Positions 10,033 to 16,739 of a stretch of 64,000 nucleotides of DNA are shown here, in pieces. The DNA is from Leucosporidium creatinivorum (Eukaryota; Basidiomycota; Microbotryomycetes; Leucosporidiales; Leucosporidiaceae). The number at the start of each line of letters is the position of its first letter. The stretch's first letter is position 1. The translations under genes were made by a program, and so were the position numbers. Under the pieces are notes generated by a model. It saw nothing but the letters and a program-made list of their open reading frames with translations, ran no database searches and had not been told where the DNA came from. The DNA lies in the NCBI GenBank assembly GCA_001600635.1, contig BCKL01000003.1, forward strand, positions 310,001 through 374,000, given 5' to 3'.

Positions 10033-12202
10033 ATGTCCTCCAACCACTCTGTCCTTTCCGAGCCCGAGTTCGAGCGTGAGTCTACCACATCTGGGCTGCA
10101 CCAGCCGCTCCCTCGCCTTTCGCAAGCTGACCGCCTCTCTCCCCCGCTTCTCCAGAGGCCGTTCACGAGATCGAGTCCACCCTCGCTCCCCTCTTCAAGG
10201 AGCAGCCCGAGCTCGAGCGCGCCTTCAAGGGTAGGCTGTTGTCCTGCACCTTCGAGTCATCGACGGGCGCTAACGCCACTTCGCTCTTATCTAGTCCTCC
10301 AAGTTCCCGAGCGAGTCCTCCAGGTAGGCCTCCCCTTGCTCGCTCGGTGTGCTGTACCCATGCTAACGACTCTGTTGCACAGTTCCGTGTTGTCTGGGAG
10401 GACGACAAGGTGTGTTTCCCATGCTCTGACATCGTCTCGGGCTCGCTCTTATCCGCGATTTTTCTCTTTCCCAAAGGGCAACTGCCATGTCAACCGCGGC
10501 TACCGCGTCCAGGTGAGCCGCCGTCCCCACTTGAGATCTACTGCACTACAGCAAGCTGACCCTACATTACACTACAGTTCTCCTCGGTCCTCGGACCCTA
10601 CAAGGTGGGCTACAGAGCGCACATCGCCGTCATCGCCGTTTCGGTCAGAGAGCTGATTCACGCCGCAACAGGGAGGACTCCGTCTTCACCCCTCGGTCAA
10701 CCTCTCCATCCTCAAGTTCCTCGGATTCGAGCAGATCTTCAAGAACGCCCTCACTGGCCTTCACATGGGAGGAGGAAAGGGAGGATGCGACTTCGACCCT
10801 AAGGGCAAGTCTGACAACGAGATCCGCCGTTTCTGCTACGTGAGTGACTACATTAGCTCTATCGCAGAGCAGGAGCTGACTTTGAGTCATCTGTTCTACC
10901 TGTAGGCTTTCATGAAGGAGCTCTCCCGCCACATTGGTGCGTTTGCGAGCGCTTCTCGTCTTCGCCGTCGACGCCGGAACTGACTTTCCCCTCGCAATTC
11001 TACAGGACCCAACACTGATGTCCCCGCTGGAGATATCGGAGTCGGAGGACGTGAGGTCGCCTACATGTTCGGAGCCTACAAGGCTCTCCGCAACGAGTGG
11101 TCTGGAATCCTCACTGGTGAGTTTCGGCGTTTCGCAGTCGAGTCGCCGAATCCTTGGCTGACTTGGGCCTTCTTTCCACTACAACAGGAAAGGGATACGA
11201 CTTTGGAGGATCCAAGATCCGCCCCGAGGCCACCGGTTACGGACTCGTCTACTACTCGTGAGTCTTGACGTCCTTCGCCGAGTCGCTGAGAGCGAAAGCT
11301 GATCGCTATCTTCGCTCAAAAAGCACCCACCTCCTCCGCGAGTTCCACGGCCAGGACTGGCAGGGCAAGCGTGTTGCCCTCTCGGGATCCGGAAACGTCG
11401 CCCAGTTCGCCGCCCTCAAGGTCATCGAGCTCGGAGGAATCGTCGTCTCGCTTTCCGACTCGCGCGGCGCCCTCATCGCCACCGGCTCGACTGGCTTCAG
11501 TGCCGACCTCGTCTCCCAGATTGGAGAGCTCAAGCTCAAGGGCGGCTACCTGGTGGACCTCGGAGAGCTCGAGGGCTTCAAGTACCTCGCCGGCGAGCGC
11601 CCCTGGACCCACTTCAAGAACCTCGATGTCGCTCTCCCCAGTGCCACTCAGAACGAGATCTCGGGCGAGGAGGCCAAGGTCCTCGTCGAGGCTGGAGTCC
11701 TTGTCGTCGCTGAGGGATCCAACATGGGATCCACCCAGGAGGCCATCGACGTCTTCGAGGCTGCTCGCGCTTCCGGCAAGGGACTCAACGGCAACGCCCC
11801 CGTCACTTACGGACCCGGAAAGGCCGCCAACTGTGGTGGTGTCGCCGTTTCTGGACTCGAGATGGCCCAGGTGAGCTTTCGCGCTTNCGACTTTNGCCGA
11901 ACTCGGATNTAACCCTCGTTCTTCGCGCGCTTCACAGAACTCGCAGCGCATCCAGTGGACCGAGGCTGAGGTCGATGACAAGCTCAAGAACATTATGGAG
12001 GACTGCTACAACATCTGCTTCGCCACCGCCAAGCGTTACGCTAAGGAGGGAGAGAGTGAGTTCGACTTCGTCGCCGAGCCTCTGGACTCTAAGCTGACTC
12101 TCTGTACCCTCTTTCACAGTTCCTTCTATCGTGCAGGGAGCCAATATCGCTGGTTTCCTTAAAGTCGCAACGGCAGCACGCCAGACGGGAGATTGGTGGT
12201 AA
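10033..12202 (+). CDS. GDH1: NADP-specific glutamate dehydrogenase
   Basis: Makes glutamate from 2-oxoglutarate and ammonium with NADPH in the cytosol, the main ammonium-assimilation step. Thirteen exons spanning 10033-10075 to 12120-12202 give 454 residues, the usual size. Conserved blocks in order: [40 protein letters not shown] (substrate binding), [27 protein letters not shown] (catalytic Lys), [25 protein letters not shown], and the dinucleotide loop [16 protein letters not shown]. The end [10 protein letters not shown] replaces the usual VADAM..QG.V tail and may be slightly altered. Exons 3-6 are only 27-36 bases. Three N bases lie in the intron at 11871-11937. From 11618 onward the gene lies in the left arm of a large inverted duplication, so its 3' end exists twice. 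Confidence 0.95.
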
Positions 12203-12847
12203 AAGCCGAATCTGCCGTCGGTTCAGGGTCATAAAAGGGCGGGCTAGTGCCCCACTCGCCTAGTAGTTGTTATTGTATATTCGTTATTCCTCGCTACATC
12301 GCTGCAGACCGTCTGTGAGCTCAGCGAAGCGAATTTGGAACTTCGGCGCCGAGATATGCTTGCACGGCTCATTGCGTTTGGCAGCAGCGCCCGGATCTCT
12401 TTCTCTCCTGCTACAGCGATTGTAATGTATAACAGCAGGCGCTGTGCAGGCGCAACCCTGCTGAACAGCAGCTGAACAGCAGCTCGGCGCCGACTCGGCG
12501 AACGAGAAGAGAGGGGCAGCGAACTAGACTTGGGACGCCGCCTACGTTGCACATCGATTCTGATACCCTATATCACGCTCTGAGCCCGCATCAAAACCCT
12601 CGTTAGCCTTTTGCACCCCTCTCATCGCGAGAGACCTCCCGAGAAGTAGCCTTTCGCTCTCTCCCTCCCACGTCGTCGCTCGTCTCCAATCCGACATGGC
12701 ACCGCGGGGCTACTTGCCCATCTCGGCCCAGCCATCACCCTCATTAGCATCAAGCAGACTGTTCGACGTCAGCCCAGCGCGCGAGCCGCCTTTGAGGATT
12801 CTCGCGCACTACCTGCTCCGACCGAAAGGCGCGCTCGCCCTCTTCGT
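11618..12847 (+). repeat. Left arm of a 1.23-kb inverted duplication
   Basis: From GAACCTCGATG in GDH1 exon 11 to CTCTTCGT in the first Stealth exon, the sequence recurs in reverse complement at 15505-16739. It contains the last GDH1 exons, the whole GDH1-Stealth intergenic region and about 150 bases of Stealth coding sequence. The arms are nearly identical; the clearest differences lie around 12540-12580. Confidence 0.93.
12203..12695 (+). promoter_or_regulatory. GDH1 3' region and Stealth promoter, duplicated in the right arm
   Basis: 493 bases inside the left repeat arm. It has a direct short repeat GCTGAACAGCA near 12465-12485. The same stretch stands in reverse before the Stealth fragment at 15656, so two copies of this promoter exist facing each other. 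Confidence 0.5.
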
Positions 12848-15449: not shown

Positions 15450-15656
15450 TTAGAGATGTGGTGTAACGTGTTGTTGTATAGCTAGCGGGCTTGCACGCGC
15501 TAGCACGAAGAGGGCGAGCGCGCCCTTCGGTCGGAGGAGGTAGTGGGCGAGAATCCTCAAAGGCGGCTCGCGCGCTGGGCTGACGTCGAAGAGCCTGCTT
15601 GATGCTAATGAGGGTGATGGATGCGCCGAGATGGGCAAGTAGCCCCGCGGTGCCAT
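15450..15656 (-). pseudogene. Duplicated N-terminal fragment of the Stealth gene
   Basis: Starts MAPRGYLPISA as the intact gene does (with His for Gln at residue 12) and follows it for about 50 residues up to GALALFV, then leaves the repeat and ends after 17 unrelated residues. It lacks the membrane anchor and every Stealth motif, so it cannot be functional. Its upstream promoter copy seems intact, so it may be transcribed antisense to the Stealth 3' end. Confidence 0.8.
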
Positions 15657-16739
15657 GTCGAGTTGGAGTTGGAGACGAGCGACGAAGTGGGAGGGAGAAA
15701 GCAAAAGGCTATTTCTCGGGAGGTCTCTCGCGATGAAGGGGTGCAAAAGGCTAACGAGGGTTTTGATGCGGGCTCAGAGCGTCGTACAGGACGTCAGAAT
15801 CGATGTGCAATATCAGAGACGTCCCAAGTCTAGCTCGCTGCCCCTCTCTTTCCGTTCGCCGAGTCGGCGCCGAGCTGCTGTTCAGCTGCTGTTCAGCAGG
15901 GTTGCGCCTGCACAGCGCCTGCTGTTATACATTACAATCGCTGTAGCAGGAGAGAAAGAGATCCGGGCGCTGCTGCCAAACGCAATGAGCCGTGCAAGCA
16001 TATCTCGGCGCCGAAGTTCCAAATTCGCTTCGCTGAGCTCACAGACGGTCTGCAGCGATGTAGCGAGGAATAACGAATATACAATAACAACTACTAGGCG
16101 AGTGGGGCACTAGCCCGCCCTTTTATGACCCTAAACCGACGGTAGATTCGGATTTTACCACCAATCTCCCGTCTGGCGTGCTGCCGTTGCGACTTTAAGG
16201 AAACCAGCGATATTGGCTCCCTGCACGATAGAAGGAACTGTGAAAGAGGGTACAGAGAGTCAGCTTAGAGTCCAGAGGCTCGGCGACGAAGTCGAACTCA
16301 CTCTCTCCCTCCTTGGCGTAGCGCTTGGCGGTGGCGAAGCAGATGTTGTAGCAGTCCTCCATAATGTTCTTGAGCTTGTCATCGACCTCAGCCTCGGTCC
16401 ACTGGATGCGCTGCGAGTTCTGTGAAGCGCGCGAAGAACGAGGGTTANATCCGAGTTCGGCNAAAGTCGNAAGCGCGAAAGCTCACCTGGGCCATCTCGA
16501 GTCCAGAAACGGCGACACCACCACAGTTGGCGGCCTTTCCGGGTCCGTAAGTGACGGGGGCGTTGCCGTTGAGTCCCTTGCCGGAAGCGCGAGCAGCCTC
16601 GAAGACGTCGATGGCCTCCTGGGTGGATCCCATGTTGGATCCCTCAGCGACGACAAGAACTCCAGCCTCGACGAGGACCTTGGCCTCCTCGCCCGAGATC
16701 TCGTTCTGAGTGGCACTGGGGAGAGCGACATCGAGGTTC
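15505..16739 (-). repeat. Right arm of the 1.23-kb inverted duplication
   Basis: Reverse-complement copy of 11618-12847. It ends abruptly at 16739 inside GDH1 coding sequence (only the 3' part is present) and at 15505 inside the Stealth first exon. The three isolated N bases at 16448, 16462 and 16470 match those at 11909, 11895 and 11887 in the left arm. Beyond 16739 the sequence is unrelated to GDH1. Confidence 0.93.
16155..16739 (-). pseudogene. Duplicated 3' fragment of GDH1
   Basis: Holds the last part of exon 11 (from the [13 protein letters not shown] block), exon 12 and exon 13 with the same GDWW end and stop. The N-terminal domain and catalytic Lys region are missing, so no enzyme can be made. 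The splice sites of the two introns are kept, which indicates a recent DNA-level duplication and not a retrocopy. Confidence 0.85.

What the first reader, a model, noticed from the sequence alone, without database searches (positions are those of the whole stretch)
11618..16739. 1.23-kb inverted duplication enclosing the Stealth gene
Arms 11618-12847 and 15505-16739 are near-identical reverse complements. Each carries the GDH1 3' end, the GDH1-Stealth intergenic DNA and the Stealth 5' end. Because the arms hold both gene junctions, recombination between them would flip the Stealth body and leave both genes complete in either orientation: the Stealth gene would simply use the other promoter copy. 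This could be a recent rearrangement, a switchable arrangement, or an assembly artefact from haplotypes.
Basis: partly seen in the sequence, partly recalled or inferred. Interest (0 to 1): 0.75.

Follow-up and report, generated by a model that had tools for sequence, protein, structure and literature searches.

The report
Flip-tolerant inverted duplication around Stealth gene
In this genome, probably a fungus's, a gene is enclosed by two mirror-image copies of its own starting end and its neighbour's tail, so the stretch could turn round without breaking either gene, and similar arrangements lie nearby, one of them around the well-known gene CDC48.

Summary
Order: glutamate dehydrogenase, arm A, Stealth body, arm B, SelK-like gene. 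In-silico flips leave both genes complete at 8 of 8 crossover points, but Stealth changes promoter only if the crossover falls in the inner ~340 bp. The locus is not alone: 264 kb of the contig hold seven local inverted duplications, one enclosing CDC48 with its last exon in both arms. In seven tested arm alignments (six events) identical runs are longer than random, as gene conversion between arms would give. In the two loci with known frames, 16 of 17 coding differences between intact and truncated copies are at third codon positions, as if both copies had been used. Best reading: an old inverted duplication, kept similar by ectopic gene conversion and probably turned round repeatedly, like the Saccharomyces chromosome XIV flip/flop region. 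No reads or second strain were available: flipping is inferred, and an assembly artefact is unlikely but not excluded.

The parts
10033..12202 (+).
   Evidence: Gene model (acceptor 11324 used); Pfam ELFV_dehydrog 1.5e-73; PDB glutamate dehydrogenases over residues 9-454
11618..12847 (+). Arm A of the inverted duplication: dehydrogenase 3' end, intergenic DNA, Stealth 5' end
15505..16739 (-). Arm B, reverse complement of arm A, 96.8% identical
12505..12847 (+). Inner, divergent part of arm A (Stealth upstream DNA, 5' leader and first 152 coding bp): 26 substitutions in 343 bp against 6 in the outer 887 bp
   Evidence: Fisher p 2.9e-10 all sites; 7.6e-10 silent sites
15505..15852 (-). Inner, divergent part of arm B
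12696..15424 (+). Stealth-family gene, 7 exons, 780 aa; first 152 coding bp lie in arm A, the rest in the single-copy spacer
12848..15504 (.). Spacer that would be inverted by a crossover between the arms
15450..15656 (-). Truncated Stealth 5' copy in arm B: open frame of 68 codons from an ATG, 51 Stealth-like residues then 17 unrelated ones; points into the Stealth 3' end
16155..16739 (-). Truncated dehydrogenase 3' copy in arm B; 3 substitutions in coding DNA, all synonymous third positions
16973..17439 (-). Next gene, SelK/SelG-like, convergent with Stealth, 104 aa in my model; ends 233 bp beyond arm B
   Evidence: Model; Pfam SelK_SelG 3.1e-07
11887..11909 (.). Three single Ns (11887, 11895, 11909) in a dehydrogenase intron, mirrored at 16470, 16462, 16448: read here as arm differences the assembler could not assign

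Best explanation
A real, old inverted duplication. Step 1 (inferred): about 1.2 kb spanning the dehydrogenase-Stealth junction was copied in inverted orientation to the far side of Stealth, by a staggered-break inversion or a replication template switch. Step 2 (supported, not proven): the arms recombine with each other; ectopic gene conversion keeps most of their length nearly identical. Step 3 (inferred): some of these events resolve as crossovers and turn the 2.7-kb Stealth body round. Because both arms hold the end of the neighbour and the start of Stealth, either orientation leaves both genes complete, so the flip is tolerated and both copies of each gene end can be seen by selection over time. 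The flip is a tolerated by-product rather than a demonstrated switch; the Stealth promoter changes only if the crossover falls in the inner 340 bp.
For: Arms and gene content. Eight of eight simulated flips keep both genes. Uneven divergence at silent sites, 6/581 outer against 26/241 inner, p 7.6e-10. Longest identical run longer than random in 7 of 7 tested arm alignments (six events), p <= 0.011; differences crowded at the ends in 6 of 7 at p < 0.05. Coding differences between intact and truncated copies at third codon positions: 10 of 10 here, 9 synonymous, and 6 of 7 in CDC48; together 16 of 17, p 2.7e-7 against one in three, 0.003 against a mixture in which only one copy is constrained. 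Same build at CDC48: last exon in both arms, body in the spacer. Known precedent with the same logic: PMC9731477, passages.
Against: No read data, no second strain, no related genome. Our own pair does not show differences crowded at both ends (9 in the end 30% against 9.6 expected). Two of the seven alignments (342, 335) are fragments of one event. Uneven divergence could in part reflect uneven constraint. The inner part is 8% divergent, so crossovers there, the ones that would expose the arm-B Stealth start to selection, must be rare. The dehydrogenase body never moves, so flipping by outer crossovers does not expose the arm-B dehydrogenase end; its three silent differences need conversion or inner crossovers. 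The codon pattern rests on 17 differences in two loci; blocks of unknown frame in pairs 210, 226 and 335 show no clear skew modulo 3. The mixture value 0.62 is my assumption.
Confidence: 0.55

Rival explanations
1. Static scar: the duplication arose once (staggered-break inversion or template switch) and has not flipped since; gene conversion homogenises part of it, and arm B is a decaying leftover.
For: Sharp outer and inner edges with no convincing similarity beyond them and no evident shared junction bases (by eye). Staggered breaks are an established source of inverted duplications with truncated genes at inversion breakpoints (PMC5080602, passages).
Against: A leftover should collect changes at all codon positions; 10 of 10 here and 6 of 7 at CDC48 are third positions.
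Confidence: 0.25
2. Arm B derives from a diverged allele or a once complete second gene pair, so the silent differences date from a time when both copies were functional; there has been no flipping.
For: Explains third-position differences without flipping. The inner part is far more divergent than the outer, as expected of a mosaic of old divergence and later conversion.
Against: Needs the same coincidence at two loci (this one and CDC48). No other copy of the arm or of the spacer was found in the assembly.
Confidence: 0.15
3. Assembly artefact: a short-read assembler, or two haplotypes, produced the inverted copy.
For: Single Ns are mirrored in the arms, so parts of the arms were not resolved; which way the spacer points rests on long-range links (largest gap between assigned differences in the outer part 337 bp across the Ns, then 281 bp).
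Against: Both junctions of arm B are gap-free; the inner arms differ by 8%; of 51 single Ns in the 264-kb sample, 36 lie in inverted arms and 15 where the partner falls into a 6250-N gap, so nothing suggests general heterozygosity. STE3 gave two adjacent hits at one place.
Confidence: 0.07
4. A regulated switch or RNA-level device: arm B's promoter copy drives antisense RNA into Stealth, or read-through makes a hairpin with the arms, silencing Stealth through RNAi.
For: Arm B carries the whole dehydrogenase-Stealth intergenic DNA and the start of Stealth pointing into its 3' end; Piwi and RNase III domain hits exist in the genome.
Against: No expression data. Not shown that the RNase III hits include a Dicer. 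The arrangement needs no such role to persist.
Confidence: 0.05

Closest known systems
Saccharomyces chromosome XIV flip/flop region (PMC9731477; passages seen)
   Same: Single-copy segment between long inverted repeats containing genes; repeats said to be homogenised by gene conversion; orientation toggles as a by-product.
   Different: There 4.2-kb repeats hold two gene pairs around a 24-kb region and both orientations were observed; here arms hold only the ends of two genes around 2.7 kb, one orientation is known, and other inverted duplications lie in the same 264-kb stretch.
Sclerotinia sclerotiorum MAT inversion (PMC3574095; passages seen)
   Same: A 3.6-kb segment between inverted repeats, one of which is a partial gene copy; fungus; crossover flips the segment.
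   Different: There 250-bp identical repeats, a MAT locus, the inversion segregating 1:1 in meiosis and one gene truncated; here 1.2-kb arms, no MAT gene recognised at the locus, both genes stay complete.
Mating-type switching by inversion in Hansenula polymorpha (PMC4238957; start of abstract in the listing only; repeat details recalled)
   Same: Inversion of a chromosomal region changes the neighbourhood of genes in a fungus.
   Different: Mating-type function; nothing like that is shown here.
Inversions from staggered breaks in Drosophila (PMC5080602; passages seen)
   Same: Inverted duplications carrying truncated gene parts at the borders of a segment.
   Different: Drosophila inversions are far larger (recalled) and the truncated copies are said to accumulate mutations; here truncated copies look constrained.

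Membership tests
Inverted-repeat-mediated recurrent inversion (flip/flop type) | Long near-identical inverted repeats flank a single-copy segment | tested here: met
Inverted-repeat-mediated recurrent inversion (flip/flop type) | Repeats homogenised by gene conversion | tested here: inconclusive
   Within one genome uneven silent divergence and long identical runs fit it; the proper test, arm trees across strains, was not possible
Inverted-repeat-mediated recurrent inversion (flip/flop type) | Both orientations exist in the population | not testable with these tools
   One assembly; the tool says it has no relatives here
Staggered-break inversion scar | Inverted duplication of breakpoint DNA with a truncated gene copy | tested here: met
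Staggered-break inversion scar | Gene order differs from the unduplicated ancestor by an inversion | not testable with these tools
   No related genome held
Programmed mating-type inversion | Mating-type genes in or beside the invertible segment | tested here: not met
   Neighbours are dehydrogenase, Stealth, SelK-like; the STE3 hits are on contig C25; homeodomain genes were not searched
Transposon terminal inverted repeats | Multiple copies of the repeat in the genome | tested here: not met
   Two copies found
Transposon terminal inverted repeats | Transposase between the repeats | tested here: not met
   Spacer is filled by the Stealth gene
Recombinase-driven inverton | Short inverted sites and a dedicated recombinase | not tested
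   Arms are 1.2 kb; no recombinase was sought
Stealth protein family | Conserved regions CR1-CR4 | tested here: inconclusive
   CR2 and CR3 above cut-off, CR4 25.3 bits against a cut-off of 27.4, CR1 not reported at E 0.001

The most novel reading that the evidence does not exclude
This organism carries a set of small flip-tolerant cassettes: inverted duplications whose arms straddle gene ends, so that ordinary single-copy genes (glutamate dehydrogenase, Stealth, CDC48) stay whole in either orientation; the segments turn repeatedly, and the spare gene ends are held under coding selection because each takes its turn.
Probability: 0.3. Interest if true: 0.8.

Novelty: new variant of a known kind. 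Interest (0 to 1): 0.52.

Why it matters
If the spare gene ends are really under coding selection, sequence alone can reveal recurrent inversion without population data. It would also show how small inversions with breakpoints inside needed genes survive, and offer several independent natural cases in one genome of a process studied in Saccharomyces at one locus.

Tried and rejected
Mating-type switch: not favoured for this locus; STE3 hits lie on C25; homeodomain genes were not searched. Transposon: arm found twice only, spacer single copy. Degenerate similarity beyond the arm edges: no hit outside; inside only 14-17-bp matches at E 0.14-0.5. Microhomology at junctions: none evident by eye. 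Wider sampling of arms through gene families: the kinase scan (153 matches, 127 of 230 candidates scored, list cut) showed, by eye, no near-identical opposite-strand pair on one contig, one equal-score pair on C47/C48, and one same-strand pair on C36, so the C3 stretch may be richer than the genome; the MFS scan scored only 9 of 187 candidates and told nothing.

Orientation bias is not established. In 264 kb there are 7 inverted local events against 1 direct of 439 bp, two-sided p 0.07. With three inverted pairs met elsewhere it is 10 against 1, p 0.012, but two direct pairs were met elsewhere too (kinases on C36; C14 about 614 and 688 kb, 84.7%), which makes 10 against 3, p 0.09. The count of 7 merges the fragments 335434-342836/373454-382840 into one event and leaves out pairs more than 75 kb apart, a 66-bp direct repeat, and two short extra inverted matches beside the 226 and 258 pairs. 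Nine arm alignments were made; seven were tested (left out: 339385, a fragment of the same event as 335434 and 342263, and the old 350238 pair).

Pfam on ten open frames around other pairs: SNF2 in one, a bromodomain below cut-off in another, nothing in eight. Paper searches listed no title about several such loci in one fungal genome; only listings were seen except passages of PMC3574095, PMC9731477 and PMC5080602; a Stealth search gave nothing used. The organism was not identified; a basidiomycete yeast is my guess. That single Ns come from an ALLPATHS-type assembler is recalled, not shown (listing only).

Full report
What is there. The window is C3:310001-374000 of a 27.7-Mb, 63-contig assembly; that it is a fungus is my inference from the intron-rich genes and their kinds. 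Arms 11618-12847 and 15505-16739 are inverted copies: 1197 of 1236 columns identical, 32 substitutions, 7 gap columns. Two copies were found and the DNA between them is single copy apart from hits of 45-77 bp. The order is: glutamate dehydrogenase 10033-12202 (+), Stealth 12696-15424 (+), arm B, SelK-like gene 17439-16973 (-). Arm B sits between the two convergent genes and cuts neither.

Can it flip harmlessly? I simulated inversions at eight crossover points from 11660 to 12840. The dehydrogenase protein is unchanged in 8 of 8 and the Stealth frame is open in 8 of 8, with Q12H in 3 of 8. For crossovers at 11660, 11800, 12150 and 12400 Stealth keeps its own 200 bp of upstream DNA, because the inner part of the arm travels with the body; at 12600 it is a hybrid; at 12740, 12800 and 12840 it takes the other copy.

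How have the arms evolved? The outer 887 bp differ at 6 sites and the inner 343 bp at 26. At silent sites only, 6/581 against 26/241, p 7.6e-10. Fifteen of the inner differences lie between 12505 and 12574. All ten coding differences are at third codon positions (three in the dehydrogenase, seven in Stealth) and nine are synonymous. If positions were hit evenly that has probability 1.7e-5.

The locus has company. Self-comparison of 264 kb of C3 (200001-464000) found seven local inverted duplications, counting fragments of one event once: 210245/218134 (97.7%), 225982/241056 (97.9%), 258109/264490 (99.6%), this one, 335434-342836/382840-373454 (89-95% in three fragments, with a 6250-N gap), 408296/415646 (88.7%), and an older 350238/361957 (82%); there is one direct duplication of 439 bp 33 kb apart and one of 66 bp. 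Elsewhere: C14 651528-653966 with 659167-661605, 99.96% over 2439 bp; C4 862811-865453 with 880740-883192, 91-93%; C3 about 516-521 kb with 592-597 kb, 97.2% over 4849 bp; all inverted. Direct pairs also exist, so a preference for inversion is not shown. Beside the 99.6% pair a 76-bp match of 80% continues in register outside the core (257630/264968), so that duplication is older than its core looks. In seven tested alignments the longest identical run exceeds random placement (p from below 0.0002 to 0.011, 5000 shuffles), and in six of seven, not ours, differences crowd at the ends (p 0.039 or less); two of the seven are fragments of one event. I read this as gene conversion between arms, though uneven constraint could contribute.

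A second gene-end case. The 408/415-kb pair encloses the body of CDC48 (PDB matches to p97/Cdc48; that CDC48 is essential in yeast is recalled). The last coding exon, ending in EEEEDLYS and a stop, is in both arms. Of seven coding differences six are at third positions and one changes L to H. Together with this locus 16 of 17 are third positions: p 2.7e-7 against one third, 0.003 against a mixture with one constrained and one free copy (0.62, my assumption). Counting only gene ends at the inner borders (Stealth and CDC48, 13 of 14) the values are 6e-6 and 0.012. For the other pairs no frame is known; their modulo-3 counts show a clear skew only at 339385 and C4, which may hold coding DNA.

Assembly. 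In the 264-kb sample there are 51 single Ns; 36 lie in arms of at least 90% identity and 15 lie at 336248-339355, whose mirror position falls in the 6250-N gap. Here the Ns 11887, 11895, 11909 mirror 16470, 16462, 16448. I read N as a place where the assembler could not tell two arms apart; this speaks against general heterozygosity and for an assembly whose spacer orientation depends on long-range links. The duplication itself, with gap-free junctions and 8% inner divergence, is unlikely to be an artefact.

Interpretation. The flip/flop region of Saccharomyces chromosome XIV offers the closest mechanism: repeats homogenised by gene conversion, a minority of events (about 4% in the passage seen) resolving as crossovers, inversion as by-product (PMC9731477). 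The same process here would explain the near-identical stretches, the constraint on spare gene ends, and why arms cover gene ends: only inversions that leave genes whole survive. The origin could be a staggered-break inversion (PMC5080602) or a template switch; junction bases did not help me decide. Shown: duplication, content, uneven divergence, codon pattern, sister loci, tolerance of flipping in silico. Inferred: gene conversion, flipping, origin. Not tested: orientation in nature, expression.

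Noticed in passing
window 25434-32836 and 63454-64000 (continuing to C3:382840, L024): Large inverted duplication, 89-95% in three fragments, about 31 kb between arms, with a 6250-N gap in one arm; 19 of the window's 25 single Ns lie in its span of arms.
   Followed up: partly
L027/L028 (C3:408296-409268 and 414669-415646): Inverted duplication enclosing CDC48, the last exon of CDC48 present in both arms.
   Followed up: yes
L034 and L035 (C14:651528-653966 and 659167-661605): Inverted pair identical at 99.96% carrying the C-terminal part of a Piwi domain, ends pointing outward; C25 30828(-)/81164(+) has a similar arrangement by coordinates only.
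   Followed up: partly
L004 and L005 (C3 about 516-521 kb and 592-597 kb): 4.8-kb inverted pair, 97% identical, 12 Ns per locus; related at about 80% to window 26.2-29.4 kb; the four matches listed for that query are all on contig C3.
   Followed up: partly
L015/L016/L017 (C3:227767-228001 and 241357-241591): A 70.6% inverted match lies just inside one arm of the 226/241-kb pair but just outside the other, so it is not a plain continuation; perhaps a trace of an earlier rearrangement.
   Followed up: no
window 12538-12574: Twelve substitutions between the arms packed in 37 bp of the Stealth upstream region, far denser than elsewhere; unexplained.
   Followed up: no
window 40238-40590 and 51605-51957: Older inverted pair, about 81-82% identical, 11 kb apart.
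   Followed up: no
C47:19323-20402 and C48:33186-33920: Kinase exons with identical scores on two different contigs in opposite orientation, perhaps a duplication split by the assembly.
   Followed up: no
L012 (C3:1348439-1348552): A second, sub-threshold Stealth_CR2 hit (26.5 bits), perhaps a distant relative of the Stealth gene.
   Followed up: no
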